Notes under the pieces: model-generated | The model's database searches: none | What the model saw: the letters and a program-made list of their open reading frames with translations, nothing else | What the model was told of the DNA's origin: nothing | Translations under genes and position numbers: made by a program | In this document: positions 1,946-63,629 of the stretch, one piece after another | Layout: each line of letters starts with the position of its first letter | Numbering within the stretch: position 1 is the first letter of the stretch | Source: Manduca sexta | Taxonomy: Eukaryota; Arthropoda; Insecta; Lepidoptera; Sphingidae | DNA length: 64,000 nucleotides | Direction: 5' to 3' | Assembly: GCF_014839805.1 (NCBI RefSeq) | Contig: NC_051142.1 | Location: forward strand, 18,570,589-18,634,588

Positions 1946-1989
1946 ATATGTAATAAATATTGAGTAGAGCATGGCAGTAAAGTCCTAAA

Positions 1990-3831: not shown

Positions 3832-3857
3832 TTGAGGGATACAATGTCTTCAGCATT

Positions 3858-12963: not shown

Positions 12964-14073
12964 TCTATACTATTTATATAAAGCTGAAGAGTTTGTTTGT
13001 TTGAACGCGCTAATCTCAGGAACTACCGGTCCAAACTGAAAAATTCTTTTTGCGTTGGATAGCCCTTTGTTCGTGGAGTGCTATAGGCTATATATCATCA
13101 CGCTATACCCAATAGGAGCGGGGCAGTAATGGCTAATCTCAGGAACTACCGGTCCAAACTGAAAAATTCTTTTTGCGTTGGATAGCCCTTTATTCGTGAA
13201 GTGCTATAGGCTATATATCATCACGCTATACCCAATAGGAGCGGGGCAGTAATGGCTAATCTCAGGAACTACCGGTCCAAACTCAAAAATTCTTTTTGCG
13301 TTGGATAGCCCTTTGTTCGTGGAGAGCTATAGGCTATATATCATCACGCTATATTCAATAGGAGCGGAGCAGTAATGGCTAATCTCAGGAACTACCGATT
13401 CGAACTGAAAAAATATTTTTGTGTTGAATAGTCCTTTGTTTGTGGAGTGCTCAAAATTATATATCATCACGCTATGACCAATAGGAGCGGAGCAGTAATG
13501 GCTAATCTCAGGAACTACCGGTTTCAACTGAAAAAGTCGTTTTGTGTTGGATAGCCCTTTATTTTTGGACCGCTATAAGCTATATATCATCACGCTATGA
13601 CCAATAGGAGCGGAGCAGTAATGGCTAATCTCAGGAACTACCGGTTTGAACTGAAAAATCTTTTTGTGTTGGATAGCCCTTTGTTCCTGGAGTGCTATAG
13701 GCTATAGATCATCATGCTATAACCAATAGGAGCGGAGCAGTAATGAAACATGTTGCAAAAACGGGTAAAATTATGAGTTTTGAGAGCTTCCGTTGCCTGC
13801 GCTGCGTAAACGGTTAAAGTTATGCAACAATGATGTATGACGGGATTGTTTCACTTAAAAAGTTCTAAATAATATAACAAAGTCCCCCGCTGCATCTGTC
13901 TGCCTTAACGTGTTAAACTCAAAAACTACCCAATGTATTAAGATGAAATTTGGTATGGAGACAGTTTGAGACCCTGGGAAGAACATAGGCTCCCGGGAAA
14001 CTACTATTTTTATAACGGAAAACTTTAGCCTGAAAAACTTTATAACGCGGGCGGAGCCGCGAGCAAAAGCTAG
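12964..14073 (+). mobile_element. Non-autonomous Helitron, copy 2
   Basis: Same termini as the copy at 3075: TCTATACT start, GC hairpin and AAAAGCTAG end, and an A/T target. Six tandem units of about 123 bp (starts near 13009, 13132, 13254, 13377, 13500, 13623) make it the longest of the three + copies. The 3' 330 bp is nearly identical to the copy at 33780-34802, suggesting recent activity or shared descent. Confidence 0.9.
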
Positions 14074-32700: not shown

Positions 32701-35700
32701 ATTACCAACAACTTAGTCCAGGTTGTTTCAATTGTGATAGGTAAAATTAAAACATGTGGCAGTAACGAATTGCGATGAAATTCACAGCCAAGCGAAAGGC
32801 TTTGCGCGCTTGTTTAGTGTGGTAACTGTTAGCTTTACTTGACTTCTGAAACAACACGGGGTAAGATGTGATGTCTCACTTCCAGAACGATGGCGTACCT
32901 GATGCGGCACCTGCGGCGCGTGTCGCTGCTGAGCGAGTCGACAGGCATGACGGCGCGCAACATGGCCATCGTGTGGGCGCCCAACCTGCTGCGCTCCCCC
33001 GCGCCGCAGCACGCGCTGCAGGGCGTCGCCGTGCAGGTCACCACCACCACCACTACCATTATACAGACTATTCGATCGCTCAGGCACGACCTGTTTGAAG
33101 TTTGTCACGGGTGATGATATAGCTATTGTTACTGGGGACTGGCAAGTGTCGACAGATGTATTATTGTGACTAACTTCAAACCGGTCAAGACATAGCGGCT
33201 GCACTGTAGACTAGTTAATGCCACTATCGCCACTTACACCATTACCGCCAGCTCACGTCCTCTCCTAGCATAACCATTAACACGTAACTACATTTCAAAC
33301 ATTCTAACACTATCTTCACACATGCACGTACAGCAATGTATTTACGAAGGTTATCATTTCGGCAGGCGGTGGTGACGGAGTTCCTGATATGCTACGCGGA
33401 GGAGCTGTTTGCGCAGGAGCAGGGGGCAGATTCAGGACCGGAGTCTCTGGAACAGGTGTGTAAATATGGTATATGAGTCACGCGTGATCCATAAACGAGA
33501 GTCACGTGTGGTGTGGTCCACATGTGACAATGATGACCATGGGGTCGTGAGACAGTTTTATCGGTACTGTGAGTCACATGTGATCCATAGTCTTGTCACG
33601 CGTGACCCATGCTGTGAGTCACGTTTAAATTGTGACCCATGTTCGTCGTTGAAACTGTGAACTGTTACCTTTTAGGAGCAGTGTGAAACACAAGAGGTGG
33701 AGCTCCGCGGCACGGAGTCCTGCAGGCGGCCCAAGAGTTTGCCCATCAATCCACCCACCAAGCTATTGAGGTGATTATATCTATACTATTATATAAAGCT
33801 GAAGAGTTTGTTTGTTTGTTTGTTTGTTTGTTTGTTTGTTTGTTTGTTTGTTTGAACGCGCTAATCTCAGGAACTACCGGTCCAAACTGAAAAATTCTTT
33901 TTGCGTTGGATAGCCCTTTGTTCGTGGAGTGCTATAGGCTATATATCATCACGCTATACCCAATAGGAGCGGGGCAGTAATGGCTAATCTCAGGAACTAC
34001 CGGTCCAAACTGAAAAATTCTTTTTGCGTTGGATAGCCCTTTGTTCGTGGAGTGCTATAGGCTATATATCATCACGCTATACCCAATAGGAGCGGAGCAG
34101 TAATGGCTAATCTCAGGAACTACCGGTTTCAACTGAAAAATTCGTTTTGTGTTGGATAGCCCTTTATTTGTGGACCGCTATAAGCTATATATCATCACGC
34201 TATATTCAATAGAAGCGGAGCAGTAATGGCTAATCTCAGGAACTACCGATTCGAACTGAAAAAATATTTTTGTGTTGAATAGTCCTTTGTTTGTGGAGTG
34301 CTCAAAGTTATATATCATAACGCTATGACCAATAGGAGCGGAGCAGTAATGGCTAATCTCAGGAACTACCGGTTCCAAACTGAAAAATCTTTTTGTGTTG
34401 GATAGCCCTTTGTTCCTGGAGTGCTATAGGCTATATATCATCATGCTATGACCAATAGGAGCGGAGCAGTAATGAAACATGTTGCAAAAACGGGGAAAAT
34501 TATGAGTTTTGAGAGCTTCCGTTGCCTGCGCTGCGTAAACGGTTAAAGTTATGCAACAATGATGTATGACGGGATTGTTTCACTTAAAAAGTTCTAAATA
34601 ATATAACAAAGTCCCCCGCTGCATCTGTCTGCCTTAACGTGTTAAACTCAAAAACTACCCAACGTATTAAGATGAAATTTGGTATGGAGACAGTTTGAGA
34701 TCCTGGGAAGAACATAGGCTCCCGGGAAACTACTATTTTTATAACGGAAAACTTTAGCCTGAATAACTTTATAACGCGGGCGGAGCCGCGAGCAAAAGCT
34801 AGTTTCTTTATAATTATTAACCAACAAATATTAACTTAGCAAGACAGGCGACAAACTGTTTATGATCTCCCTAATGACAGTATATAAAGCTTACTAAAGT
34901 CGTGATCTCTTTACTTTGCCGGAAATACCGGAATCACAAGTATTCGCTGCGGAGCTTTATTTAGAGCATGTGTATAAAAATAATAATAAAAATATCAACC
35001 CTGTGGGGAAATTATGGTATTTCTAATCAGATTTTTAAATTGTTATTTGTCGACCCGTAGCTTGGAGGAGGCTCGTCGCCGAGGCCGCGCGAGTGGCTCG
35101 TCACCTCCCCGCTCAGCCCCGCCCGCGCCGCCCTCGCCCTCGCCCTCCGCCTCCGCCTCGCCCTCCGCGCCGCTGCGACCCACGGCACACCTGCAGCCGC
35201 AGTACATCGAGGTAAGTCTTGCTTAACTTGGATACCTACTTTGTACATCACCCTGTTAATGTTAGTGAATATATAGGGTGTTGTATAAATGTGGGATTTT
35301 TAACTTAATCATGTGTAGGCGATATCATTGTTATAACATTTCACTCATAGCTTTAATATCATGATACCGTAATAATTGTTAAATACTTAGCTAAGTATAT
35401 AAAAAACTTAAAATAGTAACATAATAAATTAGCTAAAAATTAAAAGGTGCGTAAATAATTTAATAATGATCAAAATAATAATAAATTGAGGTAAATAATA
35501 AAACAAAGCCGTGCACTAACCACTAACATGTGTGCAGGTCGGCTCCGGACCTAACAATCTGCCGCAGTACCACACCGTGCTCGACTTACCGCTCTCAGGT
35601 TAGTAATAGTACTTCAATTGAACTTGTACATATCCTGCGCCTTATGAAATGAGAATGTCATAATGTTTATTAATTGATTGGATTGAATTGTCCAAAACCA

Positions 35701-38700
35701 AAATATTTACGAATGAATATACTAAATTGGTATTACTTACCCAAAATATTCGTAATATGATGTAATAACCCAACCCGTCCGTGTGTCAGGCGCCAAGCGC
35801 GGAGTGAAGCGGTCTCCGTCGGGCTGGCGCGGGCTGTTCACGCGCAGCAAGCAGCAGCGCCCGCGCCCCGCGCCGCCCCCGCCGCCGCCCGCCGCCGCCG
35901 CCACCGCCGCCGCACAGGTACGTGCCCTCCACTTATATACAGGGTGTGCGTTTTACTAGGGATTTGTTTGCAAAAGATTTCGATGCATAAAATTAAGCAC
36001 CCTTTCAAAATTGAGGTAATTTACGCAGGCGAAACCGCTGGCAACATCTAGTTGAATGATAAATATCCAATTCAAATTAATAATACAAACATTAACATGG
36101 TGACTTGCATTGCAGGAACCTGTTGTGGGCGGAGTGCGTCCGTCCCGTTCGTGCGAGTCGGTGTCGGAGGCGGACACGCTGCCGCCACTCACGCGCAATC
36201 ACACACAACCACTACGACAACACGCTCGGTATGGAATTAATACAATAAGGTCAATCATCATCATAAGCAATAGAGTGCCTGCTGCTAAAAATATAAAATT
36301 TATATTGGATATTTTTACCAGCAATTCTATAACAAATTAACCTACTACTATCTAAAACTACGTCATCGTAAATGGTTTTCATTGGACAAATTTTCGAAAA
36401 CATCATATGTTTGTAAAGTGTAAACATCTGCTCTCATCACTGCTGATATGTTTAGTGTTTACAGATTTGTGACGTCATGTCGCTGAATCAATAGTTTTGT
36501 AAATTTTTCTGACATTTAGATACTATTAATAAATTTTGCCAGACCTATTTTAATATTTAAAAAATAATAAAAATTACATATAATGTGTTTCTTTGTAGGT
36601 CATCATCGTGCGATTCGTATTTCGAGCCATGGCAGGCGGAGCTGGCGGACATGCGCCTGCGCCTGTCGCCACAAGAGAGAGACAAGCACATGTTCAGCGA
36701 GGAGGACGACCCGCAACAACGGCCTCACGTGAGTACATTCGTTTTAGACGGGGAGAGAGAAAAAACTCATTATGCTGCTAGTTTCATATGGACAAAGTGG
36801 ATAGATTATTACTATGTAGTAGTATCAGCCCTGTATTATATATTGATTAACATATTACTGGTGGGGACAGGCCTCCCCTACTACTAAGAGGCATTAGGCC
36901 TTAGTTTGAAAGAAAACCTGTATACCTGAGAAGTTCTCTATGGGAATTTTTCAGGTCATGTGAAGTCTACCAATCCGCACTAGGCCAGCGTGGTGGACTA
37001 TGGCCTAAATCCTCTTGATAGTAGAGGAGGCCCGTAGCTAGCAGTGAGACAGTATATAATAAAGGGTTGATATTATTAAAAGACGCGCGTGATATGTCGC
37101 GTCCAAGGACTATAGTCTGTATGGTGCTTATTAGACATTTGTATAAATATACAATTGCTTATATCACTTACCTTACGTGTAATGTTGTAGGATGATTCCC
37201 TGTGTTCAACTCCACCGGAATCCGGGTTGTGCAGTGTGGAGCCAAGTCCCAGGAGGAACTTGCGAGTCGATATAGAGGCAGCTAACGAATTGGCTGAAAG
37301 GTGAGTAATTCATTATAACAACTTCTTGAATTATAACTAATTAAATATTAAAATATATAGGGTGTCTAAAGATGGGAGAATGAGTATAATTTGATTAGGA
37401 GAGTAAAAACCTTATTTTGGGGCTGTCAGTGTTGCTTTATTGTTTTTAAGTTGATATTGTCATTATAAGAAATTGGTGAGATGTCTTACTGCATTATGGT
37501 GTGGATCTTAACTTTTTGGTCAGATTATTATTTATTGGTTGATTCATTGTAGACTGCCAAATAGGGTTCCTTATTTTCTTGTGAGCGAGTACGGATAATT
37601 AGAAAATCGGTGTATTATTGTCCCTCGTAAATTTATATTGTAATCGTTGGTTAATATATAAAGCTGAAGAGTTTGTTTGAATGTGCTATCTTCAGGAACT
37701 ATAAAAGTTATTGTTTTTCACATTACACGTGAGTTTTGTAGGCTACTTTTATCCTGGAAAGTTTTTGATATGGGTGGAATGAGTTGTAAGGGGTCGTCCA
37801 TCAAGCACGTGATGTTTTTTTAGTGACTTTTTAACCCCCTTCCTTCCTGGCGCTATGTTTTGAGGTTTAAGCCCCCCCCCCCCCCACCCTAACCAAAAGC
37901 ACGTGTTTCTTTTGGTACAAAGTATATTGAAATTTTTTGATTAATTTTTAAATACACGTATAATCTGATAAAATTTTGGAAAATTAAACATTGAGATAAA
38001 ATTGTCCAGACAGACAACATGTTGCAGGCTCTTTTAGGCGCATAGAAAGAATAAAGGAACGTTTAAAAAAACATATATTTGTACATGAACGTTGTCGCGA
38101 AGCGCGGGGAAATCGTTGCTCGGCAACGGTGAGTCAATGTTCACTCGTCGTTTTTTGATCAACGAAAAATAAATACACTTGATATATCATTACTCCCCCC
38201 TTATCCTTGTCATATTTCGTGATTTTATTTTCGAACCCTTCTCCCCTCTTCGATCCTCACGTAATTAATGGATGAGCCCTAAAAGTTCGTGTGGTGTATG
38301 TGGTGTCGGCAGACGTCGCGCGGCGCTGGAGGAGCAGCTGTCGTCGCTCGGCTACATCGACGGCGAGTCACCGCGCGCGCGCGCCCCGCCCGAGAAGCGA
38401 GCCTCCGCGCGACCCGCCAGCCCCGCGCACAGCGACATCGCCAAGCGGTACGTACACGCGCACGCACGCACGCACACGGACACAGCGGACACACACAAAG
38501 TCTCAGGCGAGCCTCCGCGCGACCCGCCAGCCCCGCGCACAGCGACATCGCCAAGCGGTACGTACACGCGCACGCACGCACGCACACGGACACAGCGGAC
38601 ACACACAAAGTCTCAGGCGAGCCTCCGCGCGACCCGCCAGCCCCGCGCACAGCGACATCGCCAAGCGGTACGTACACGCGCACGCACGCACGCACACGGA

Positions 38701-41700
38701 CACAGCGGACACACACAAAGTCTCAGGCGAGCCTCCGCGCGACCCGCCAGCCCCGCGCACAGCGACATCGCCAAGCGGTACGTACACGCGCACGCACGCA
38801 CGCACACGGACACAGCGGACACACAAAGTCTCAGGCGAGCCTCCGCGCGACCCGCCAGCCCCGCGCACAGCGACATCGCCAAGCGGTACGTACACGCGCA
38901 CGCACGCACGCACACGGACACAGCGGACACACACAAAGTCTCAGGCGAGCCTCCGCGCGACCCGCCAGCCCCGCGCACAGCGACATCGCCAAGCGGTACG
39001 TACACGCGCACGCACGCACGCACACGGACACAGCGGACACACACAAAGTCTCAGGCGAGCCTCCGCGCGACCCGCCAGCCCCGCGCACAGCGACATCGCC
39101 AAGCGGTACGTACACGCGCACGCACGCACGCACACGGACACAGCGGACACACACAAAGTCTCAGGCGAGCCTCCGCGCGACCCGCCAGCCCCGCGCACAG
39201 CGACATCGCCAAGCGGTACGTACACGCGCACGCACGCACGCACACGGACACAGCGGACACACACAAAGTCTCAGGCGAGCCTCCGCGCGACCCGCCAGCC
39301 CCGCGCACAGCGACATCGCCAAGCGGTACGTACACGCGCACGCACGCACGCACACGGACACAGCGGACACACACAAAGTCTCAGGCGAGCCTCCGCGCGA
39401 CCCGCCAGCCCCGCGCACAGCGACATCGCCAAGCGGTACGTACACGCGCACGCACGCACGCACACGGACACAGCGGACACACACAAAGTCTCAGGCGAGC
39501 CTCCGCGCGACCCGCCAGCCCCGCGCACAGCGACATCGCCAAGCGGTACGTACACGCGCACGCACGCACGCACACGGACACAGCGGACACACACAAAGTC
39601 TCAGGCGAGCCTCCGCGCGACCCGCCAGCCCCGCGCACAGCGACATCGCCAAGCGGTACGTACACGCGCACGCACGCACGCACACGGACACAGCGGACAC
39701 ACACAAAGTCTCAGGCGAGCCTCCGCGCGACCCGCCAGCCCCGCGCACAGCGACATCGCCAAGCGGTACGTACACGCGCACGCACGCACGCACACGGACA
39801 CAGCGGACACACACAAAGTCTCAGGCGAGCCTCCGCGCGACCCGCCAGCCCCGCGCACAGCGACATCGCCAAGCGGTACGTACACGCGCACGCACGCACG
39901 CACACGGACACAGCGGACACACACAAAGTCTCAGGCGAGCCTCCGCGCGACCCGCCAGCCCCGCGCACAGCGACATCGCCAAGCGGTACGTACACGCGCA
40001 CGCACGCACGCACACGGACACAGCGGACACACACAAAGTCTCAGGCGAGCCTCCGCGCGACCCGCCAGCCCCGCGCACAGCGACATCGCCAAGCGGTACG
40101 TACACGCGCACGCACGCACGCACACGGACACAGCGGACACACACAAAGTCTCAGGCGAGCCTCCGCGCGACCCGCCAGCCCCGCGCACAGCGACATCGCC
40201 AAGCGGTACGTACACGCGCACGCACGCACGCACACGGACACAGCGGACACACACAAAGTCTCAGGCGAGCCTCCGCGCGACCCGCCAGCCCCGCGCACAG
40301 CGACATCGCCAAGCGGTACGTACACGCGCACGCACGCACGCACACGGACACAGCGGACACACACAAAGTCTCAGGCGAGCCTCCGCGCGACCCGCCAGCC
40401 CCGCGCACAGCGACATCGCCAAGCGGTACGTACACGCGCACGCACGCACGCACACGGACACAGCGGACACACACAAAGTCTAAGGCGAGCCTCCGCGCGA
40501 CGCCGCCAGCCCCGCGCACAGCGACATCGCCAAGCGGTACGTACACGCGCACGCACGCACGCACACGGACACAGCGGACACACACAAAGTCTCAGGCGAG
40601 CCTCCGCGCGACCCGCCAGCCCCGCGCACAGCGACATCGCCAAGCGGTACGTACACGCGCACGCACGCACGCACACGGACACAGCGGACACACACAAAGT
40701 CTCAGGCGAGCCTCCGCGCGACCCGCCAGCCCCGCGCACAGCGACATCGCCAAGCGGTACGTACACGCGCACGCACGCACGCACACGGACACAGCGGACA
40801 CACACAAAGTCTCAGGCGAGCCTCCGCGCGACCCGCCAGCCCCGCGCACAGCGACATCGCCAAGCGGTACGTACACGCGCACGCACGCACGCACACGGAC
40901 ACAGCGGACACACACAAAGTCTCAGGCGAGCCTCCGCGCGACCCGCCAGCCCCGCGCACAGCGACATCGCCAAGCGGTACGTACACGCACGCACGCACGC
41001 ACACGGACACAGCGGACACACACAAAGTCTCAGGCGAGCCTCCGCGCGACCCGCCAGCCCCGCGCACAGCGACATCGCCAAACGGTACGTACACGCGCAC
41101 GCACGCACGCACACGGACACAGCGGACACACACACACAAACATCTCCACCTAACTTTTATTCTAAGTTTGGACTAACTTGTTCAGAATTTCCCGATAATT
41201 TACTCCAGCAACAATATTTCAGTAATATTATATACGGGTCATTTCGACATTGCGTTACTAAATGAAACCACAGGTTCGTGGTGACCTCTGCTAACACCGT
41301 GCAAAAGATTATTCATAAGTAACGTATATTTACGTCAATAATCCCGATTTTAGATTTATGGTTTTTTGATCACGCTGTCTCTTAACGCGCTTAACTGAAG
41401 TGAATGAACTACGTCACAGCTGATGATATTATTACCGAACCTATAGGGTTCAGAAGGTCAGCTCACAAATGAACTCCCAATACGTTCACTGACTTGGTTG
41501 CAACAGTTCATTGAGTCAATAATTAATTACTACAAAAAATATTTCGTCAATTATAAACGTTATTTTCGTTAATAAAATAGTTTTCCTACCAAAAAAGTTA
41601 CCTACATAATTCCTAAAGTTACAAGATTTAAATCTATTGGTATCGTATTTTTTTTAAATTCTACATGATATTCCGACATTTATTTTAATTCCAACATTAA

Positions 41701-44700
41701 TATTTCGGTTTGTCATAATATCTAAAAGAAGACTACGTACACATTACCGAACGTCATATTATGCTTTCTGTACCATTTCTTTGCTATGGCAATACGTCCG
41801 AGTCTTTGACCGAGTGAAAAGAGCGCGCGATTATTCAATACAATAGTCGTACTCTTTCTCGCCTAAACTAGCAATGTTGTCAGTATAAACCTTTTTACCA
41901 AAAAGCTTGCTAAAACGACACAGCATTTCAAAAATTCTATTAGATTTTTTTTTTATTACATGATGTTCTAACAGATTTAACACACAATTGTATTACAAAA
42001 TAAAATAAGTAATGATTTATGATGAAATGATTAATGAAAAGTCTACCTAATTAAAATAATACACAGCAATATTTTAGTATTTTTAAAACATTATTTTAAG
42101 TAATAAAGTATAATAGAGATTTTGGATTCAGTGATTCATTTTCAATAGGCATACGGGGTATAAAATAAACAAGATATTGCACAATAAGTTAATAATAAAA
42201 AAAGTTTGGTAACACTGCGAAGGCACGTGTTAGTTGTAAAACTCTGGCTCGTCAAATATCGTGTACCTCCAGACTAGTGTTGCCAGGGTCAATTTGTTTA
42301 AAATCAAGACGGTAAAACAAATCGAGATTTAGTGTTGTAGATCGGGACATAAAAAAAGCAAGTATTTTTTTAAAATTTAAGTTTTATGTATTGCGTTTTA
42401 CAAAAATATCACTGCAAGTCATGCTAAAGTTGCGTTTTATTTGGATTTCTGTTTTAACATCGAAGCACAGATCGCCGGGTAGTCGCATCTCTAAGCAAAA
42501 GAATAAAACAAAACTGTACCTTCAGCGCTAGTGAGATGATACTTGCTATTTTGATTGCATTGTCGCACTCAACACAGTGATGAATTCGTAGTTTATTTTT
42601 TCATAATACTTAATGGTTTTAATAATTTTATTGGTGCAAAACGGGTCACGTCCCCAGAACCCTAAAAATCGGGACATCCCGCGCAAATCGGGACATCAGG
42701 CAACACTACTCCAGACTACTACATTTGGGGAATTCGCTAACCTCGTGTGTCGCGTGTTGGTCGGTAAGGCACAAAGATATTTAAAGTGGTCCCCTAAATG
42801 CGACCTTAACACGTATAAAATAGAGTCTATTTTTAGAAATATTTTTGTCATTTTGAATATTTTACGATCGCGAAGTTGCATCGTTGACGCGTACGCGAAA
42901 CTGAACTAATCACAATCTATTGATTATGTTTCTAGCGGGGGCTGTCATTACGATTTTAATGTGGATTTATGAATTTGCGATAGGTACTGAATGGAAAAAT
43001 CCAATATCATTTTGTCCGACCCGGGATTCGATCCCGTGACTTTAGCAAAGCATCCGTACTATAATACAACTGCGGCACCGAGGTAGTCACAAATTAACTC
43101 TATTAAAAATACTTTGAAGTATGAAACAACTTTTAAAGGAACAAGCAATCTACAAATCATTAGGTATTGGTAAACGCATTTACTATTTTGAAAACATGTT
43201 AGATACCTATTGGGACGTCGCGCCGTGACGCATCCCGTCGCTCGACATTTTTACCTAAAACTATCACATTACCTAATTATTATCAAGATTGTAACTTCGT
43301 TATTAATTGTTCGTGTGAATTGCCAGACTTGCAGAATGATATTTTATTGTTATGAGTGTTATAAATCTAACCGTTGAACATATTTATTATAACTACTTAT
43401 CTACTAAAATGGATGAACTACCTACATTAGAATGTGTGTGTTTTGATTTAAAAGAATGAAACCACTTTAAAATTACGGAAATCATGTGTTATGTGTACCT
43501 AACATATGCAGTTGTGGTTATTTGATTAGTGTCGTTTGCTTATGATGATAGTTTGAGCATAGAAAATATTGTAATGAAATGTGATGATTAATGCGTGATG
43601 TTTATGTTGGTTGGATGTCCACCTGCAAGGTGGACAGACGACTTGATAAACGTCGCGGGAACACATTGGATGCAGGCAGCTTTCGACAGGTCCGTCTGGA
43701 AATATTTAGGGGAGGCCTATGTTCAACAGTGGACTTTATGTGGCTGATGATGATAATGATGTTTAGGTATGTGGCTTTTTTGTAACGTCGGCGTAGCGTC
43801 GTCGCTGCTGGTCTAATTGTTGATTGAGTGATGTGGCACGACACAAAACCCTAGGTAGTTAAAGCGCCGACATCAGCTGTTCGGTTGCGGCGCGGCGCGC
43901 GCGGTGCGACGAACTACCCTTGCGCTCCGAGTGTATATCACTTGTTCGTGTGCGTGAGCATAATATTATCAATGACTGTGTGCGATGTTGCCGCTCCGAC
44001 GAATTCTAGTATAGTAGTAGTGGCAAAAGGGTGTGTAAAAATAAAATTACTATTTGAATATTTATTTTGTTTGAAAATTTTACTTTTTTGTTTTTGACCT
44101 TAGGTTAGAGTAACTTATAGTAAACTGCTTCTTTCAAGATGACTTTCTCGCAGTTAAATTTAAGTCTAGGGTTACAAAATGACCCCGTATATATACATAG
44201 TATGGCTCTCCACAAGTCCTGCAAGCTTCAAAATTAATAGAATTCGACTTGCAGTGATTGTTTAGGCGGTAAAAATTATTACGAAAATCGAGCTATGCCA
44301 GTTTTGTTGCTCTTTTGAGCCTAACTTAATACTAAATAGTGCTATTTCCCACAGATTATGCAAAGATCGCGACAGCCCCATGGCGCCGCAGACAGATTTC
44401 CAGAACACCGCGAACAACGTCAAACTGAGGTGAGTAAAGTGCATAACATTTGGTTGATATTAAAAAACATTCGTTGTGAATTGTCTATAGAATATTGTAG
44501 TATTGATAAACATAAAAAATCACGATATGAACTTATTTAATATCTTGGGATGAAAAGACTGAACTTTAAACTTTTGTTATATGAATTTTATATAGCTATT
44601 AAAATATGTCTATTGCAATAAATCGTAATTAAAAATAGACTTAGCAGTCAATCGTCAAACGTGCGTATGAGTGATGGTGTTTTGTCTACACTCAGTATGC

Positions 44701-47700
44701 ATGTGTCGGCTCGACCAGGCTGGTATATAAGCCTGTCTGAAGATCTTCAGTTTTGCTGCTGCGTGTTTTATAGACTGTAAGTTTGCCAAAGGACCAATCA
44801 TCTCCCAATTTCCAATTCCTATGTAAAGTTGAGTCTGTAGTACTTTGGCTGCGTTATCATCAGAAACCTAGCTGCTTTTATCTACCTACTCCTATTAAGT
44901 CATTGTATTTATTTGAGTAATACAATATCAAATTAAACCCAAAAATCTTGATATATAAACATATTATGTGTCCATATTATTACCAACTAGGAAGTTTGGC
45001 GGTTGACTCCATAATTAAAGTGACTTCGCCTAAAGATTACTATGACACAAAAATAATACAAATGCACATTACGCCTACATCTCCGAAGGACTGGCAGAGG
45101 TGCATTCAGGGTACCCATGTAAGCCTTGTTCCGTCCCATGATATAGGGGCACAATACAGACAATTCATGACGAATGTGTTGTTGTAAGTTTTCATTTCGT
45201 CTGACATGTTCCGTTTGAGCAGAAAATCTGTCACTTTATGTGCACGATGGTGTGTGTGTCCGTGGCAATGAATGATGTGTACTTGTAACTGTAGCTAAAT
45301 ATTAGATGTTTTAAATTGTTAATCAAATAATGTTTAACAAAAACTATAAAATATAAAAAATATGTTTACTTACTTCGATATTTTCCTTATTATGTTTGTA
45401 TCGTTGTAACAAATCAAAGATTTTTTGCGGCTTTGAGTTTTACAAAACAGCATTTTTTGAGAACTAACGAATGCATAATCTTACATAGCACCCGTAATGC
45501 AACCAATACCATCGCAAAAAGCCCAATCAATATTAAATTCGCATACAAACTTCATAAATACATGCACACACACCACCGTCCAAAAATAACCAAAATAATT
45601 TTCAAGCTTGCTTCACATCTAACATTGCAGAGAGAGAAACTCCCCGCGAAAGACAAAGTCGACACGATACAGCGGTGTACATCATCCGGTCGATGAAAAG
45701 ACTGTCGCCGTGACGCGACTCAGTTGGCACGGAAAAGACGGACACTCGACACTGATCAAAATCGATTGGCCGGTTGAGAACAACTCTATGAGTAATCTGA
45801 CGACTAGCACGATAAACTCCAGTCCGATGACTCCGGCCACTCCGGTGTACGATCCGTTGGAAAGCGACTCCGAAGTCAGCGAGAGTAACAAACAAACGAT
45901 ACAGATTAAAAATGACGTTTGCGTCAGCTGCGATAAGGAGACGTGCCTCAAATGTGAACTGAAGGCCACGGATTTTGAGTCCAAAGTTTACGAGAACAGT
46001 TTGGATCCAAGTCCTGTGCATTCCGGAAGCTATAATTTAAACAGATTGTCGGCTGTGTCGACGTCGTCGAACTCCGACCAGGAGAAGAGGGCCAATGACG
46101 TCATTAAAGTGATGACGTCGTCGCATGAGAGTTCTTCAAGTTACTCGAATGTAAGCTCTAAGCAAGATGAATTGTATGAATGCTACGGGTTTACAAGACC
46201 CAATTATATTAATTTACAATCTTCAAGCACCAGCAAAAGCTCTCCAGGATCTCCTTTAAAAAGCCCATTGAAATCTACCATAAGCATCACATTTAGATCT
46301 CCTACCAAAACCAAAAACGAGTTTGAAGGCATAGACGGAAATAACACGCCCACAAACGACAGAGATTCGGTCTACGAAGACATAGATTTAGAGAAAAACT
46401 TGTCTATAGTAGAGGAGGCGAGTGTGCCGGAAACGGATGCAAGTCTGCCAACGCAACAGGCATGCCAACCTGAGCATTTTAACGATGATCTCATTATATT
46501 AGAAACTCCTACAGAGAGGTTCGAAGATCCAGTAGACGTTTACAGCCAAGTGAAATTCTTTAAAAAGAGCATAGAAGAGGTCAACGCACTGATTTTCGAT
46601 TCTCCAGAAACGGAATGTCAATACGAAGACGAACAAAGTCATTACGAAAACGTTAAATTTGATAGGCACAACGACTACGAAAATATTAATGTGGAGCTCA
46701 AATTATGTGACAAGAAACTAGAAATTACTGAAGTCGATAATAAAGAACCGGATTCCGTGGAGAAGGACAACGGAAATGTTATAAAAAAGAATTTGAATGT
46801 TCGTGAACTAGCGATTAGGTTTGAAAGTCCTACTGAACAGAAACCACCGTTCACATTCGAAAAGTTTAAAGCCGAAATTAAATATCCAAGTCTGGAAAGG
46901 AAAGAAGACAGGAGGAAAGAAGATGCCAAAGATTCGAAAGTTAAACTAGCTAGGAGTTCTAGCAACGCGCGTTCGCTGGACGAAAGCGCTTTCGTTAAAG
47001 AATTTGGTCATGAAAAGAACTATGTAGACAGGAGGAAAAGTCTCGAAGTCAGAGACGTTAAAAGAACGACTAAATTGTTAGATTTGAATCTAAATATGGC
47101 GGACAATGAATCTAAAAATAGTGTAACACCTACAAGTGAAAACAAGATATCGTTAATACAAAGATTTAATGAAAAACGACCCACAGACATCAAAAGCTTA
47201 ATCAGCGTTGACACAGAAAAGAAACTAAGCAGAGAAAGGATAGAGAAATACAAAGAAGAAAGAAGGAACTTCTTACGAGAGAAATACAGTTCCCAATCGT
47301 TCAGAAGTAATCCAGAGCAATTGACTAGGATTAAGATAAAGAAAGATTTAGACGATAAAGGCGATTGTGAGAGGTTGAATGACCTGCCTAAGTTTGAACG
47401 GAGAAATACAGTGGACCTCGGACAAAGGATGAGGTTTTCTGTGGCCAAAAGTGCCAACAATTTGGACACTATAGCGTCCCCCACTAGTCCTGAGAAAGGG
47501 GAACCGAGCGTCGAGTTGAGAGACAGTGAGAGGTAAGTTTCCACTAAGTTTGAGGTTATACGGTATGTTTGTATTAAAATGATCAAAGCTTAAATTATTA
47601 CACATATTTTAAAAACTGGTACATTTTAAGATCATTTTTTTTTTACCTTCTATGTTTCAAGGATAAAATTAATTAATAAATTTTAAAAATGCATAAATTT

Positions 47701-56726: not shown

Positions 56727-59700
56727 CTGCGAGGGAAACATATTTCATTTACACAGATACATCTAAGTATGTATTAAATTAGCTGATCCCAGCGTATCTT
56801 GTTTTTTTTATTGCTTTGAATGACGAGAGAGAAGTTTGCTGTTCGCCTGATAGTAAGCAATACGACCGCCCATAAACCAGTCGCCCGGAAATTACAAAAT
56901 ATTGGTCCAATTAAAGATAAAATTAACCAATACGTTAATCCAAAATTTAGACTATTACCAAAATTCTTCCAAATATACTCTAAAGTTTACTTTAGACAAA
57001 TATCAAACATTTTCGAAAAGTATAACATAGTTAGACATAGGTAGTATATCTGACCGCCCAGTTTGTGCTCTGGTCGAGGTAGAAGTAGCTGGAGCCGAAC
57101 CACACGCCGTACGTCAGCACGATGTACACCCAGCTGCAACGGAACAACAGCTCAGTACACTTCAAGTCAATTGTACAATTCTAAATAATTATTGGTTTTC
57201 TTATATGCATATAAAATGATATATACCACCCAATATTTTAAATAAATAGTCTCCTTACTTAACACATAAATAATCCCCTTAAAACCCCCAAATTATTTTT
57301 ATTCAACCACAAATATTTTTTTTTTTGAAATGGGCAATATAATTATACTACACAATATTTTGTTTACTAATGATTCTAAAAATATGGAATGACCAATCAG
57401 CTTATTTTAAAGATGATCATGATGCACAATTATGAGAATTAATAAACCAATCCAAGCAGGGACAATTTTATATTTTTAATTGTAACACAATTTCTATGAA
57501 TTCGTTCCATTCCACGTTTACAGTTTAACCTTCATTATAGTGTAACGCTATACAATGTTTTTATGCAGCTATTAGGAGACGAACTATTCTAATATGGTTT
57601 ACAACCAATTCTTTTTATAAATATGATTGACTCATTATCTGCAAATATTAAGGGATGGTTCCAATATACTCTATCGTTTTTAAAATCACAAATATAACAT
57701 TCCCGTTACCTGTACCAGCGGATGGACTCCCGGTGCAGCAGCTTCATGACGATGTAGAACAGCGTGTAGAGGAACAGGTTGCTCATCAACACGAGCAACA
57801 AGTGTGACGCGAAGTCGCGCGAGTGTTGCGCAACACTGAACCACACAGTACAACATTATAGATATATGTGTGAATGTAGCTTGATATGCCTATGGACGAT
57901 CTTGTCTAGTATGGTATGACAGAGAAGACTATAGAAGCCATTAGATGTTTATCCCCGAAGTCAGAGGTGCAATTAGGGCACCCACTTCTCGCCAAGTTTG
58001 TTTCTATTGGACAATTAATGCTCCAAAAAAAATGTCTGTACTGTTGTGGCGATTCTTCATTGGAGTGGAATAAGAGTGGGGCGGAAACAATCATTTTTAA
58101 GGTAATAATAAAAAGTATAATCAAAATTTGTTAGGGTTGGAGTGTCGACTTGAATTTCTTATGTCTTGTTCGTTACTTAGTTATATGCAAAGCAATGCTA
58201 TAATAAAAATAGATTGATTTTAAATGCTTTCGCCATGAAACCCTTCACAGTGTGAATGTAAGATAGAATGGAGTGCTATGATTTATTAATATTGAAATAC
58301 TTTACTTCAGTCCACTGTCAGATAAACAAAGTTAAAGAAAACTAGGAAACTGCCGACCCTATACCTTTAGCCCGACTGTGAGTATGCAAGTGTCATTTCT
58401 TGAATTTGCTTTGGCTGCTAACTTCAGGGCGGTAAAATAAATAATACTGTTTTGTGTGTAGTGCTGTTGTGCACTGACCCGTAGGCGGCGATGGCCCAGT
58501 TGGCGAGGTTGGCGATGAGCAGCAGCACGCAGCGGCCGCAGTGCGTCGGCGTCACCGCCACCAGCGGCCGCGACAACAACTCGCGCGCCGCGCGGGACAG
58601 CACGCCGCCGTCTGACAACACGCGGCTCACTACTGCACTATGTTCACAGCTCTCACATCCATATAATGTTACATTATAACTCAAAACATATATTATAATT
58701 TAAGAGATACAAACAAAATATAATGCTATGATTTTATACTTTAATGCTTGAGTGACGAGTGTTATACACAGACGGTACACGCATATAAACGTATTGCACG
58801 TGCCAGCCTCAGGTGATCTGTCTATATAAGTAGTTCTACTCACAATATTTGTACCAATACCGATCAATTAAATTAGATTTAATTACCTCAACAAACATTA
58901 CCTTAGAGTTTAGACTCTAATAAACGCCCATGATGATCACCAAAGAGTCTCATGTATCAAATTATGTTTTTGTTTTGCGGTTAGTCATAAATCGTGGATG
59001 TTACCATCTATACTGCCGAGGATCGACATTGGGCCGTAAGACCGGTGAAACCAACATAACCGTCGCACTGACCCTATTTTTTGCCCGCAAAAAGGAGAGG
59101 AGAGTGGAAGGGAGAGATATGCTCGCCTCATCAATGGGCGGTAATTTTTTACATTCATTTTCATATTAGTCACATTTATACTTCATTAGAAATGAGATCC
59201 ACTGACCGAGTTTGAATCGTCCGAGGTAGTATATCTGGAAGGTCATGACGAGGCACGTGACGAGGTGCAGCACGGTGAACGCGATCCAGAAGTAGAAGTT
59301 CGCGTTCAGGATGCCCACCAGACCTGTTCAAAACGGTACACTGACATAAAAATACAATATAATTTTGATCAATGCAATATCGACTTTGTAAATAAAGAAC
59401 ACAACGTCGATATTCCTTTGTTCAAAAGTATACATTTTGACGAATATATCAAGTGAAATACTAGTAATGAAAAGAGGTTGGGTGTGTGACCCGAAATTGG
59501 CAGTAATTTATATTAAAAATATTGCTATGTGCAGGAGTGGGCGTGTAGTAGGGATATCGCTCCATCTCTTTCCTTCGCACATAGCAACTCTAGATGACGT
59601 CACATGCGCGTATTGAGCCTGTTTTAATTTCTGGACACTTACCCCTTCTGTCGAAATTCAATGGCTTATAACTTATTTATTTTCACCGAATTTTAATCAA

Positions 59701-62700
59701 TATTTCTAATAGAATTTATACGAGATAGTTATTCATTTAATAAACGTAAAGAAGACAAAAAAGTCGCCCTATTGAGCTACTAATTTGTTTGGAGAGTTAC
59801 CAATGAATATGATGAGCGCGAGCACGCCGAAGGTGGCGTGTGCCCTGGCGTTGATGTCGGGGTGCCGCGCCTGGTAGATCTTCACCATGCACAGCACCGA
59901 CGTCACGTACATGAACGACGTGTCTGCACAGCGCAATACATATTATAGGGAAACCTTATCTAAACGTTATATCCGATAGTCGTTATAAACGATGCGTCCT
60001 TATAACCGGATTCGCAATAACCGGTTTTTACTGTATATACCATCCCATACAACCTTTTTTATAACATAGTGGAATGGGGTCTAATAAACTGTCGACTGAT
60101 AAGAAATGATTACCCTTCCACAGTCAACACAATTATGCCGGCATGCTGGAACCGGATATACACAAGATAATTCCAGAACGAGACACCTCATACAGGCCAC
60201 TATGATGGGTTTTAACACCTTGTGTACGGTGGTCGCTATTCAGGCGGATATAACCCACCACCAGAAAAACTTTGGGCAAGAAAAAGAAATGTGATTCCAA
60301 TATTTATTATTAGTGCTCATATCGATAGTATCTCATTATGCAACGGTAAAAAAATTCGTCGATTAGTATCTGCATTATTTCCTTTAGCTCACATCAATTG
60401 AATAATTATAATTTCCATTATAAGCTATCGCTTAGGCCCGCTGTACAGTATCTCACCGAACTGGAAGTTCATGCTGTTGGGGCAGACGTGGTAGGCGGCG
60501 GACAGCAGCCCCTCGCTCACCAGCGCGATGCCCATCGCGTACAGCAGCCCGAAGTGTTGCGGGATGCCCATCTCCTTCTACCAACGTTAAAGGAAAGTTA
60601 CGTCAAATCGCCAAACACCATGTGACATTACGTGTGTGATATGATTCCAAAAATCAAGCAATACTTAAATGTGAATCAAACAATAAATAGCACACAATAT
60701 TTCATATTTAAACGGAAAAAAATATATAAAAAGACCAATATTGTCGGGGATAGTAAAATACTGCGTAAATAGCTTTGGTAACTATCACGCGAGTGATAAA
60801 TATATTTTTTTCAGGATTGAGATATAGCTGAATGTGTCGATATTTACTTTGTATTGAATACTCCAATGTTAATTTGACAACTTGCATCACTTTTGCGGTA
60901 TTATACTTTTCTAGAGGATATAACGCAATCACGCGATTTCACTTGAGACCACAGCTAAAATGACTTTAATAGAGAACAGGAAATTGTATGTGAAGGAAAC
61001 ATTCTATCGGTAAGTATATCGCTGGTGGACGGTCTCACCTGCGCCACACTCCGCGCCCGGTGGTAGCTGTGTCGCCTCCACACCTGGCACAGGAACAGCA
61101 CGCCCAGCATCACGTAGCCGAGGTTGGAGAACACGTGGTTGAAGTCCGACAGCACCATCAGCGGATGCGCGCACAGGAAGTTGAAGTAGCACAGGTCTTG
61201 GTTTCCGGATTGATTTAGGAGCTAAAAAAATGATTGCATAAGCCATCAAACCAGCAGTGGTTAAGTTACTAATGGTAAATGTATGTACATAAAACTGAAC
61301 GATAGAGTTACTGGCCGGCAGTGGCGTAGTTGCTATAGGTTACTGGCAGTAACTGCGGTACTGAGAGTTGCTAACTAACTTGCTAATACTAGTAACCTCA
61401 CCCGTTGGTAGGTGACGACGAGCTGTATGACGGGCAGCGTGTAGAACACGGCGACGGTGAGCACGTTCCATAAATACATGTTCGAACGGCTCGACAACAC
61501 CTTCGGGTGACATCTGTAGGTAAATACTTATATTTTAACACGGCAAGGTACCTCGCCATTAGAAATTGAAAAGCATGAAGAGAAATAATGTCAAATTGTA
61601 GTGAAATATTGAACGACAGCAATGGTAAGGCGAGATCTTGCGAATCCATGAGAAACAAAGGGGTCTATGAACATCCTGAATAGAGAAAACCTTTTATATT
61701 GGTGACAATATTCGTATCCATGAGAAATAAAAGAAAAGAACAGAGAAAACCTTTCATATTAGTATATAAGCACAATATTAATTCTAATAGAAAATACTAT
61801 TTTCGAATTATAATCCGATCAATATTTTTTTCTAAAAGCACTTTCTTTGGTGATAAGTTACTCACCTTGCCAGGTTGGCGACACACAGCTTCCCTCCCAG
61901 TAGGTAGAGATTTTTCTCCGCGTTGATCTCATCAGGCGTTGAGAAATTCGACTCGGTGTCCGATATCGAACTACACTCTATAAAACACATACATATAGCC
62001 ATTTTCATCAAGTAAGATTATGCAGTTAACGCAAAACGAACCGTATCACCCTGACATAAGGCTCATAGTAGCAATGACATCGTCCAGTCGAACTTGGGTA
62101 AATGTATAATTTAGGAATATTAGTTTAACTTGACATAAGATTAAGTTCAGACTAACAATTTCTCGCAGCAGTATATTTAACTTCCAGATGCAATACACAG
62201 GCGTCAACATTTCAATACACACGTGCGACTCGCCGCAATTCCTGCAAGCTTCAAAACTTGCAGGACTTTCTAATTTTTTTAACCCTTAATTTTTGTACAA
62301 GATTATTGTATGTAGGTATAGTGTATAACGTCCTGGGACCTGTGTGTTGCGAGGTGGGCAGGTCCCCCGGCGGGAGGTGGTGGCGGGAGGAGCTCTCGCC
62401 GCTGACTTCCATGACGTTGACGTGTCGGCGTCGCGTCGCTGGCACCGACGCGTTGTCGTGCGGGATCGCCGGGGAGATTAAACCGTCTACGGATATTAAT
62501 ACATTTTAAACCCATCGAAAGATGAAACATTTATAATTCATGGAAAGTGTAAGGTCGTTATGGCAGAGTCATGACCCTTTTCTTTACTTGACAGTTGCCT
62601 ATCATCATTATCAATTAAGGTTATTTGGATCAATTTGGTAGTTTATGGTCTTAGTCCATCACAAGAAGTTCAGTTGATTATGTTTAACAGGGTGGGGTAT

Positions 62701-63629
62701 ATTTTAAAGTTTAATAGAAAATAAGTACATACTCGACTACTGTGGGACGGTTTTATAGACTGCCTGGGGGAGAGCCTGGCGAGGGGATCACTATCTGGAC
62801 CTCATGCCGCTTAGGGGCCATTCAAGTATTATAATAATATCAGCCCTGTATTATATACTTGCTCACTGCTGAGCACGGGCCTCCTCTACTACTGAGAGGG
62901 ATTGGTAGACTACACACACCTTCGAAATTCCTATAGAGAACTTCTCAGATGTGCAGGTTTCCTCACGATGTTTTCCTTCACCGTTAAAGCGAACGATAAA
63001 TTCACAAAGAATACACACATGATTTTAGAAAAGTCAGAGGTGTGTGCCCTTGGGATTTGAACCTGCGGACATTCGTCTTGGCAGTCCGTTCCCCACCCAA
63101 CTAGGCTATCGCATTTTGTAATTGTAATTTGGAGGGTCTTGTAAAACGTTAAGAAGCGTTACAGGGGAGAGTAGGAGGAGTTCGTACAACGCGTTGTGAA
63201 CATTGTTTTTTTTAATTTAAAACAATAACAAAGGTATTTTAGCGACTTTCCCGTACTTTGCGTAACGTAATTGTATTAGAAAAAAGTCACTTTAGGGTTA
63301 CATAACTCTTTGACGGGGGACGGGTGCGTAGAGGAAAACGTTACGGCGCGTTACATGCGCGGGTGGAAGGGACAGAAATCTTCAATAATTGCGTTACGTA
63401 ATACTTGAACGGCCCCTTACAATCAAATGCAGTGGTAACTTCGCCATGCTCTATAGGAAGTCGAGTTAGCTGCGCCGTACCTTCCTCCTGGCTGGTGTCG
63501 ACGCTGCCCAGCACCTTCCTCCTGGTGCACAGCACCGCGCCGAGGAAGGCCAGGTAGAAGGACGCGAAGAACGCCAGCACGGCGCCCGCCGCGATCATGT
63601 ACTCCTGGTACGATATCGTCTCTATTATC
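56550..63629 (-). CDS. sil: SID-1-like (SIDT family) membrane protein, C-terminal part, 12 exons
   Basis: Gene-level entry; exons follow in descending coordinates. The joined reading frame is 1597 nt, about 531 residues, all junctions in phase; the 5' part lies past the right edge. Family members are multi-pass proteins linked to cellular uptake or transport of double-stranded RNA (nematode SID-1) and to lipid/cholesterol handling (animal SIDT). Evidence: [51 protein letters not shown] and [12 protein letters not shown] are signature segments. Predicted segments: one before a Ser-rich loop, then ten more to the C-terminus, the expected eleven. The CREST-superfamily residues (Ser and His in SAAYHVCP, Asp in FQFD, two His in HDIWHF) are all present, so metal binding is plausibly intact. 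Lepidoptera are known to carry several such genes (sil1-3); which one this is cannot be told here. Confidence 0.93.
56820..56885 (+). repeat. Family C head fragment in the last SID-1-like intron
   Basis: TTGCTGTTCGCCTGATAGTA and ACGACCGCCCATAAACCAGT match the start of the 54118 copy. Confidence 0.55.
57055..57133 (-). CDS. sil: SID-1-like exon (membrane segment 10)
   Basis: Acceptor CCGTTGCAG, donor GGCG|GTCAGA. It encodes [20 protein letters not shown] and QSTNWA. Confidence 0.92.
57710..57835 (-). CDS. sil: SID-1-like exon (membrane segment 9)
   Basis: Acceptor TGGTTCAG, donor TACAG|GTAACG. It encodes [20 protein letters not shown] and a hydrophobic [11 protein letters not shown] end. Confidence 0.92.
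58479..58632 (-). CDS. sil: SID-1-like exon (membrane segment 8)
   Basis: Acceptor ATAGTGCAG, donor TACGG|GTCAGT. It encodes a loop [20 protein letters not shown], then [18 protein letters not shown]. The acceptor is one of two nearby AGs; this one fits the phase. Confidence 0.87.
59207..59323 (-). CDS. sil: SID-1-like exon (membrane segment 7)
   Basis: Acceptor TTGAACAG, donor CTCG|GTCAGT. It encodes [20 protein letters not shown] and [11 protein letters not shown]. Confidence 0.92.
59801..59923 (-). CDS. sil: SID-1-like exon (membrane segments 5-6)
   Basis: Acceptor CTGTGCAG, donor ATTG|GTAACT. It encodes [20 protein letters not shown] and [13 protein letters not shown]. The Asp of FQFD is completed across this junction. 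Confidence 0.93.
60095..60265 (+). repeat. Interspersed repeat family D in a SID-1-like intron
   Basis: CACAATTATGCCGGCATGCT and CCTTGTGTACGGTGGTCGCT, in the order seen at 22186. Confidence 0.7.
60457..60574 (-). CDS. sil: SID-1-like exon (membrane segment 4, predicted metal site)
   Basis: Acceptor TGGTAGAAG, donor TTCG|GTGAGA. It encodes [20 protein letters not shown] and [16 protein letters not shown], the most conserved SID-1 block. The acceptor's preceding tract is weak. Confidence 0.93.
61039..61221 (-). CDS. sil: SID-1-like exon (membrane segment 3)
   Basis: Acceptor TTTTTTTAG, donor CGCAG|GTGAGA. It encodes [20 protein letters not shown] and [20 protein letters not shown], a signature region of the family. 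Confidence 0.93.
61402..61513 (-). CDS. sil: SID-1-like exon (membrane segment 2)
   Basis: Acceptor TACCTACAG, donor CAACGG|GTGAGG. It encodes [20 protein letters not shown] and [15 protein letters not shown]. Confidence 0.91.
61866..61977 (-). CDS. sil: SID-1-like exon (cytoplasmic loop)
   Basis: Acceptor GTTTTATAG, donor GCAAG|GTGAGT. It encodes [20 protein letters not shown] and [15 protein letters not shown]: an acidic Ser-rich loop leading to the next segment. Confidence 0.9.
62340..62486 (-). CDS. sil: SID-1-like exon (variable loop)
   Basis: Acceptor TATCCGTAG. Donor CACACAG|GTCCCA is weak but gives the required phase 1. It encodes [20 protein letters not shown] and a His/Pro/Ser stretch; low conservation is expected in this loop. 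The exon is the least certain of the gene. Confidence 0.7.
62840..63115 (-). repeat. SINE family A in a SID-1-like intron
   Basis: Reverse copy from ATCAGCCCTGTATTATATAC to the complement of GCGATAGCCTAGTTGGGTG. It lacks about 40 bp of the middle present in the 31930 copy. Confidence 0.8.
63481..63629 (-). CDS. sil: SID-1-like exon (membrane segment 1), first one in the window
   Basis: Acceptor CAGTTTCAG, donor GGAAG|GTACGG. It encodes [38 protein letters not shown] and SVDTSQEE: the first membrane helix after the extracellular domain. It enters needing two bases from an upstream exon outside the window. Confidence 0.9.

What the first reader, a model, noticed from the sequence alone, without database searches (positions are those of the whole stretch)
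38397..41142. An exon-intron junction amplified 25 times: array of phase-preserving 51-nt mini-exons
The 110-bp unit is not random intron DNA. It is the last 51 nt of CdGAPr exon 23, its GTACGT donor, and 59 nt of intron ending in TCTCAG. From unit 2 on, each copy is bracketed by an AG acceptor-like site and a donor. 51 is a multiple of 3, and the entry and exit phases (2 and 2) match, so any number of copies could be spliced in as RASARPASPAHSDIAKR repeats without frame loss. The '59-nt intron' is near the insect minimum and lacks a good pyrimidine tract, so many copies may be decoy donors instead. Either way, 25 consecutive identical 5' splice sites in a signalling gene is unusual.
Basis: partly seen in the sequence, partly recalled or inferred. 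Interest (0 to 1): 0.88.

Follow-up and report, generated by a model that had tools for sequence, protein, structure and literature searches.

The report
Splice-site junction amplified in moth gene
In the tobacco hornworm moth, the last 51 bases of one coding exon of the gene CdGAPr plus the start of the next intron are repeated 25 times in a row inside that intron; the extra copies are likely spliced out harmlessly, and similar repeat arrays sit at splice junctions of other genes of the same genome.

Summary
The array is real in the assembly: 25 units of about 110 bp (20 identical), each made of the last 51 nt of Manduca sexta CdGAPr exon 23, its GTACGT donor and 59 nt of intron, at 38397-41134. 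The mini-exon reading is not supported. The public M. sexta protein joins one copy to exon 24. None of the 45 proteins with this junction (M. sexta included) has a second copy. One unit breaks the frame. The acceptor-like sites lack pyrimidine tract and branch-point motif. The array matches a known class, the 'mirage' minisatellites of amphioxus, and resembles the donor-bearing VNTR of human ABCA7. New here: the same genome holds comparable junction arrays in at least three further genes (C2H2 zinc finger, glutamate synthase, a ZZ-finger cluster), plus two candidates. Units are about 93-110 bp, at 5' and 3' splice sites, and copy number differs between versions of one junction (16 against 52; 2 to 32 in the ZZ cluster, and one exon-only match). 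Phase is not preserved across the class, so the 51-nt multiple of three looks accidental. Everything rests on one assembly: no reads or cDNA were available, so copy number and transcript use remain untested.

The parts
38313..38447 (+). CdGAPr coding exon 23 (135 nt); its last 51 nt are the exonic part of unit 1
   Evidence: spliced reading reproduces M. sexta protein P0001
38397..41134 (+). junction array, 25 units of 110 bp (108-111), 20 of 25 identical
38448..38453 (+). exon-proximal 5' splice site GTACGT, the donor implied by the public protein
   Evidence: position-weight score 8.54, 11th best of 23 real donors; 0.5% of 1324 decoy GTs reach it
38448..38478 (+). 31-nt alternating purine-pyrimidine run starting at the donor; 25 of the 25 runs of >=20 nt in the window lie in the array
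38500..38506 (+). first acceptor-like site GTCTCAG, at the joint between units 1 and 2 (23 of 24 joints have it)
40375..40484 (+). unit 19, ends TCTAAG instead of TCTCAG
40485..40595 (+). unit 20, 52-nt exonic part (one base more), so inclusion would shift the frame
41034..41134 (+). unit 25, distal copy joined to the original intron flank (no GTCTCAG); carries AAACGG
38448..44354 (+). intron 23 (5907 nt), 2687 nt of it array
44355..44429 (+). exon 24 (75 nt, in frame; LCKDRDSPMAPQTDFQNTANNVKL)
45631..47532 (+). exon 25 (1902 nt)

Best explanation
The feature is a 'mirage'-type minisatellite: a 110-bp segment spanning the end of CdGAPr exon 23, its 5' splice site and 59 nt of intron is repeated 25 times head to tail inside intron 23, likely made by one junction-spanning tandem duplication that then grew by unequal exchange or slippage, and splicing is predicted to use only the exon-proximal donor and remove the other copies with the intron. 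Shown: structure, single locus, single copy in the public M. sexta protein and in the 44 other proteins with the junction motif, and further junction arrays at other genes of the genome. At CdGAPr and glutamate synthase the exon-proximal copy continues into the real exon and the distal copy into the intron; C14 looks the same, but its next exon was not seen. Inferred: why the first donor wins. It is the nearest donor downstream of a genuine acceptor (exon definition), whereas donors 2-25 have no upstream acceptor with pyrimidine tract and branch point. The TCTCAG at each joint is probably a by-product of the first duplication (intron TCTC next to exonic AG plus one extra G). The alternating purine-pyrimidine stretch may have favoured breakage here, but it is short in four of the six array units tested, so it is not a general cause.
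For: Unit structure and homogeneity. One locus. Protein P0001 with one copy followed by LCKDRDSP; 23 of 24 exon joints of the gene solved exactly, including donor after 38447 and acceptor at 44354. 0 of 45 proteins with the junction motif has a second near-copy; of the 13 others, one (P0039) shows a single diverged copy, and the rest lack all or part of the exon 23-24 region or do not align there. No scored candidate reads through the array. Weak acceptor context; shortest solved intron of the gene 191 nt against 59. Sister arrays: C2H2 gene on C767, two arrays; one of these junctions also on C2, 16 match rows against 52, flank 94% identical over 1101 bp; glutamate synthase on C26 (Pfam PF04898, E 3.8e-22 across the junction); ZZ cluster on C3, 3' type (PF00569, E 2.1e-12 across the junction in the L043 copy); likely C14. 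Published class with the same anatomy and reports that it does not disturb splicing (PMC3087553, PMC3902484, passages).
Against: No read, cDNA or second assembly could be examined. P0001 is a predicted isoform, and the 9 sequences of its cluster were not visible one by one, so a 17-aa-longer isoform could be hidden. Short reads cannot tell one copy from another. The acceptor-like site scores 4.03 by position weights, above 10 of 23 real acceptors and 90% of 981 decoy AGs. Three donor-spaced patterns gave 115, 138 and 97 hits against 87, 82 and 198 for the reversed patterns, so no steady enrichment of donors in arrays is shown.
Confidence: 0.8

Rival explanations
1. The copies are phase-preserving mini-exons, spliced in variable number to give (RASARPASPAHSDIAKR)n isoforms.
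For: 51 nt is a multiple of three; 23 of 24 internal joints end in TCTCAG; donor good (8.54) and acceptor score mid-range. A 59-nt intron need not be used: donor 1 to the acceptor of unit 3 gives 169 nt.
Against: Single copy in all 45 proteins with the junction motif, P0001 included; no pyrimidine tract or branch-point motif; unit 20 breaks frame; sister arrays have exonic parts of 37, 75, 79 and 74 nt and 44 nt in ZZ, of which only 75 is a multiple of three.
Confidence: 0.07
2. The array acts on splicing without being included: 24 spare donors bind U1 and slow or divert splicing, for example more skipping of the in-frame exon 24 as the array grows, as reported for exon 19 at the ABCA7 VNTR.
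For: Same anatomy as ABCA7 (each unit starts at the canonical donor; PMC5954066 passages); exon 24 is 75 nt, in frame; 25 equal donors.
Against: P0001 includes exon 24. I saw no protein joining exon 23 straight to exon 25, but proteins are a weak test of skipping. No expression or array-length data.
Confidence: 0.12
3. The array is wholly or partly an assembly or polishing artefact.
For: One Nanopore assembly with Illumina polishing (PMC8022704 passages); short-read polishing can homogenise copies; all arrays found are in this assembly with similar unit lengths (93-110 bp).
Against: Nanopore read N50 is 9,156 bp against a 2.7-kb array; arrays at unrelated genes have different units, both junction types, private variants and copy numbers differing between versions of one junction.
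Confidence: 0.06

Closest known systems
Amphioxus 'mirage' minisatellites (Adh3, globins BflGb6/BflGb9, TnC, PGBD5); PMC3087553 and PMC3902484, passages read
   Same: [quoted passage not shown] regular splicing reported; repeat number differs between haplotypes (6 and 3 units in BflGb6) or assemblies (PGBD5); the repeats adjoin the authentic exon.
   Different: The passages give 2-7 units for BflGb6 and PGBD5 and unit lengths of 10-160 bp; here up to about 13-52 copies in the largest array of each gene, consensus units 93-110 bp, in an insect.
Human ABCA7 intron-18 VNTR; PMC5954066, passages read
   Same: Each unit begins with the canonical donor GT; 23.7 units in the reference; array adjoins the exon.
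   Different: 25-bp unit lying in the intron; a length effect on exon 19 skipping was measured there, nothing of the kind here; a cryptic donor one unit downstream is used there (25-bp retention).
Internal tandem repeats at exon-intron boundaries of human segmental-duplication paralogues; PMC2812944, passages read
   Same: Minisatellites at boundaries changing the gene structure of recent paralogues, as in the ZZ cluster.
   Different: On average 30-bp units repeated 4 times; linked there to novel introns, not seen here.
Tandem (mutually exclusive) exon duplication, for example Dscam (recalled, no call)
   Same: Exonic sequence repeated with flanking intron sequence.
   Different: Copies here are near-identical, lack good acceptors and are not seen in the public protein.

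Membership tests
mirage minisatellite | tandem unit spans an exon-intron boundary | tested here: met
   51 nt exon + donor + 59 nt intron, 25 copies
mirage minisatellite | copies carry splice signals | tested here: met
   GTACGT in 25 of 25; TCTCAG at 23 of 24 joints
mirage minisatellite | regular splicing is not disturbed | tested here: inconclusive
   public protein has the regular junction, but no RNA was examined
mirage minisatellite | length instability between haplotypes or copies | tested here: inconclusive
   only one CdGAPr locus to look at; sister arrays differ: 16 against 52 rows, about 2 to 32 full units plus one exon-only match in the ZZ cluster
ABCA7-type donor VNTR | every unit carries the canonical donor of the adjoining exon | tested here: met
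   25 of 25
ABCA7-type donor VNTR | array length alters splicing or expression | not testable with these tools
   no population or RNA data
array of mini-exons / tandem exon duplication | copies are included in mature mRNA | tested here: inconclusive
   one copy in P0001, 0 of 45 proteins with a second near-copy; no RNA examined and cluster members not seen singly
array of mini-exons / tandem exon duplication | every copy flanked by a good acceptor and donor and phase-preserving | tested here: not met
   unit 20 is 52 nt and follows TCTAAG; poor acceptor context
intron gain by tandem duplication | a new intron position relative to relatives | not tested
   relatives' gene structures were not available; the M. 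sexta protein has no extra or missing residues at the joint relative to its closest relatives
dispersed transposon or satellite | unit occurs at unrelated loci | tested here: not met
   25 match rows at one place; the one other match is 44 bp of CA/CG-rich sequence

The most novel reading that the evidence does not exclude
Manduca sexta has an ongoing, recurrent process that amplifies splice junctions into arrays of roughly 100-bp period across its genome, at both donors and acceptors. The result is a natural series of genes with one to dozens of near-identical competing splice sites, in which array length tunes splicing of neighbouring exons (in CdGAPr, the in-frame exon 24) and occasionally feeds repeat-peptide isoforms or new introns.
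Probability: 0.2. Interest if true: 0.85.

Novelty: new member of a known kind. Interest (0 to 1): 0.6.

Why it matters
How the spliceosome picks one of many identical sites is usually studied with designed minigenes. Here are natural arrays with dozens of near-identical sites in conserved genes such as CdGAPr and glutamate synthase, apparently tolerated. The recurrence in one insect genome, with copy number differing between versions of a junction, extends the amphioxus 'mirage' class and makes it testable in a laboratory insect: which copy is used, whether length varies between strains, and whether new introns are born from such arrays.

Tried and rejected
Z-DNA-prone runs as a general cause: 31 nt in CdGAPr and 56 in C2H2-A, but 8, 9, 6 and 14 in the four other units tested. 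RNA structure hiding the donor: no excess stability (z 0.58 and 1.96). My first gene model joined exon 23 to 45631 and missed exon 24; the public protein corrected it. Search for fragments with two copies of the 17-aa unit: 878 candidates, none at E <= 0.001 (a 170-aa query reaches only proteins of about 94-297 aa). The pattern shrank to a 6-mer and was useless. A VNTR in the miR-137 host gene (PMC6692358, passages) was considered and left aside, since its repeats are not the splice sites. Pattern GGTRAGT x3 (115 hits, capped list): besides the C3 and C14 arrays it listed arrays of shorter units (17-48 bp, several with CACCTGATGGT-type units), an 80-bp C5 array and single hits, which I did not follow. 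Pattern AGGTRNGT x3 (138 hits, capped list): tetranucleotide and other simple or short-unit runs, single hits, a C8 array and a C4 96-bp array (L042) in which I saw no clear coding sign. Pattern CGGTRNGT x3: all 97 hits listed, in eight places. Of the four large arrays, C28 is CdGAPr, C3 and C26 are junction arrays of identified genes or domains, and C14 is a likely one (in C14 the motif lies on the strand opposite the gene and in C3 in the intron part, so there it is not the used site). C3:7970k and C3:7996k match the ZZ unit. The single hits on C6 and C16 were not fetched. Reversed-pattern control: 198 hits, capped list; it gave a further candidate, C7:2014276-2020263 (98 bp), whose displayed letters read like coding sequence followed by GTCAGT, not verified; a C13 array (119-bp spacing) was not examined. 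In one search the printed score for 'unit25' was off by one base; one search gives the right value (8.5).
Full report
What the window is. The window lies at G000:C28:18570589-18634588 of a genome with 470,002,661 bases in 4056 contigs. [quoted passage not shown] The best protein match is 'GTPase-activating protein CdGAPr isoform X3 [Manduca sexta]' (P0001, 1589 aa). So the organism is the tobacco hornworm and the gene CdGAPr, on the plus strand.

The observation. Tandem Repeats Finder reports 38397-41134, period 110, 24.9 copies, 99% matches. Parsing gives 25 units, 20 of them identical. The five variants are unit 4 (108 bp), 19 (ends TCTAAG), 20 (111 bp, 52-nt exonic part), 24 (108 bp) and 25 (AAACGG, original intron flank). 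The donor string CGGTACGTACAC occurs 25 times. In the genome search the unit matched nowhere else apart from 44 bp of CA/CG-rich sequence. In 200 kb of random sequence (20 segments of 27 drawn) one array of period >=30 and >=3 copies was found, of a dispersed 123-bp family.

Gene structure. Fitting P0001 to the window solved 23 of 24 exon joints exactly. The unsolved one covers a stretch between residues 52 and 78. Exon 23 is 38313-38447, intron 23 is 38448-44354 (5907 nt, of which 2687 are array), and exon 24 is 44355-44429 (75 nt). P0001 reads ...PEKRASARPASPAHSDIAKR-LCKDRDSP...: one copy, joined to exon 24. Of the 58 proteins found (P0001 included; at least three from sources without a species name, and some species more than once) contain the exon 23/24 junction motif. 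None of these has a second near-copy (9 or more of 17) of the last 17 residues 13-39 residues upstream. Of the other 13, P0039 aligns with a single diverged copy, and the rest lack all or part of this region or do not align there. Two further searches, one with two copies of the unit (878 candidates, none significant) and one with the frame that reads through the array (nine matches, all of them in the CdGAPr list), found no protein carrying the array. Both are limited to a range of protein lengths, and only the 7985 best candidates were scored.

Splice signals. With weights from this gene's own introns, the array donor scores 8.54, 11th best of 23 real donors, and 0.5% of 1324 decoy GTs reach it. 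Unit 25 scores 8.5. So donors 2-25 are about as good as the working one. Of 24 acceptor-like sites, 22 score 4.03, one 3.19 and one -1.62. The value 4.03 is above 10 of 23 real acceptors (scored leave-one-out) and above 90% of 981 decoy AGs. These sites have only 2 T in 17 nt (real: 4-11) and no branch-point-like motif at the three checked, against 19 of 23 real ones with at least one. The shortest solved intron of the gene is 191 nt. RNA folding gives no special structure. Use of a mini-exon is thus unlikely but not excluded by sequence. The intron-length argument stops only adjacent copies, since donor 1 to the acceptor of unit 3 gives 169 nt.

Origin. Unit 1 continues upstream into the real exon and unit 25 continues downstream into the original intron, as a tandem duplication predicts. 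The joint reads AAAGTCTCAGGCGAGCC, between exon GAGAAGCGAGCC and intron AAACATCTCC. TCTC from the intron side and AG from the exon side would account for the acceptor-like TCTCAG with one extra G; this is inference. A 31-nt alternating purine-pyrimidine run begins at the donor of the consensus unit, and the 25 runs of 20 nt or more in the 64-kb window all lie in the array.

It is not alone. The 44-bp match led to unplaced contig C767 (L038), where a C2H2 zinc-finger gene carries two junction arrays. One has units of about 93 bp (12.1 copies by Tandem Repeats Finder, 13 donors counted, spacings 77-109) and ends an exon at ...HLRTHTG. The other has 97-bp units (51.8 copies) and ends an exon at ...YEHMNHS with donor GTGAGT. 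The second junction also occurs on chromosome contig C2, with 16 match rows against 52 on C767. The 1101 bp before it are 94% identical between the two. They are therefore two versions of one locus, alternative haplotypes or paralogues; I cannot tell which. The distal flank of C767 was not matched at the C2 locus among the 41 matches listed, most of which are a dispersed repeat.

Pattern searches then gave three more places. C26: 99-bp units, 27 donors, in a glutamate synthase gene; the peptide spliced by hand matches PF04898 across the junction, E 3.8e-22, and solved glutamate synthases. C3: a 96-bp unit spanning a 3' splice site of a ZZ-finger gene, 33 acceptor joints in L040 counting that of the real exon, so 32 spare ones; in the neighbouring copy L043 the ZZ domain is continuous across the junction, PF00569 E 2.1e-12. 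C14: 100-bp units, 20.8 copies, after a reading frame ...NAAKAQ with donor GTAGGATC; gene not identified, so a likely junction array only. The ZZ gene is a local cluster. Counting full or nearly full units gives about 2, 19, 32, 12, 3, 22 and 7 in seven places on C3 and about 12 on each of contigs C3001 and C1660, and there is an exon-only match at C3:7852899 with no unit match beside it. These counts are lower bounds, and apart from L040 and L043 the places were not read.

What the sister arrays say. Consensus unit lengths are 93-110 bp. In the five 5' arrays the exonic parts are 51, 37, 75, 79 and 74 nt and the intron parts 59, 56, 22, 21 and 25 nt (some of these splits depend on where the unit is cut); in ZZ the exonic part is 44 nt. 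So phase preservation is not a property of the class, and three of the five intron parts are far too short to be spliced out between neighbours. Alternating runs are long only in two of six units. The common features are the junction itself and a GC-rich exonic part. I found these arrays by sequence similarity and by motif patterns, so they are a lower bound and a biased sample. The three donor patterns gave 115, 138 and 97 hits against 87, 82 and 198 for the same patterns reversed, so enrichment of donors in arrays is not shown.

Comparison with the literature. [quoted passage not shown] They are reported at 5' and 3' boundaries, with units of 10-160 bp, unequal repeat numbers between haplotypes, somatic instability at Adh3, and RT-PCR suggesting regular splicing (PMC3087553, passages). 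PGBD5 of amphioxus has 60- and 108-bp repeats at splice sites (PMC3902484, passages). Human ABCA7 has a 25-bp VNTR whose units start with the exon 18 donor; longer arrays go with exon 19 skipping (PMC5954066, passages). Boundary repeats in human paralogues are in PMC2812944 (passages). The literature searches listed no paper that I recognised as describing such arrays in Lepidoptera; I opened only the papers named here and PMC6692358.

Verdict. The mini-exon reading is not supported. The best reading is a mirage minisatellite whose extra donors are likely ignored because only the first donor is paired with a genuine upstream acceptor. The main caution is that everything rests on one Nanopore assembly polished with short reads, with no reads or RNA in hand.

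Noticed in passing
L038 (C767) 844-5884 and 7203-8361, minus strand: Two junction arrays in one C2H2 zinc-finger gene; the first of these also on C2:7982436-7983973 with 16 match rows against 52.
   Followed up: partly
L041 (C26:17789300-17792700) 395-3019: Glutamate synthase exon-donor junction repeated in 99-bp units, 27 donors.
   Followed up: partly
L039 (C14:6839900-6843600) 917-2992, minus strand: Likely exon-donor junction of an unidentified gene in 100-bp units, 20.8 copies; the array copies shown lack a short piece present in the exon-side sequence.
   Followed up: partly
L040, L043 and other places on C3 7.85-8.0 Mb, C3001, C1660: Cluster of ZZ-finger genes whose 3' splice junction is repeated in 96-bp units, about 2 to 32 full units by gene copy, and one exon-only match.
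   Followed up: partly
G000:C7:2014276-2020263: 98-bp array of about 60 units; displayed letters read like coding sequence followed by GTCAGT on the minus strand. Letters could not be fetched.
   Followed up: no
window 3128-3496, 13009-13745, 33860-34474; also L029 462-1451: A 123-bp tandem unit (GCTAATCTCAGGAACTACCGG...) of 3-8 copies at several places; a dispersed family.
   Followed up: no
window about 57000-64000, minus strand: Reading frames of a neighbouring gene on the opposite strand with hydrophobic, transmembrane-like stretches; gene not identified.
   Followed up: no
L042 (C4:795000-797000) 522-1566: 96-bp array of 10.9 units containing GTGAGT on the minus strand, no clear coding sign.
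   Followed up: partly
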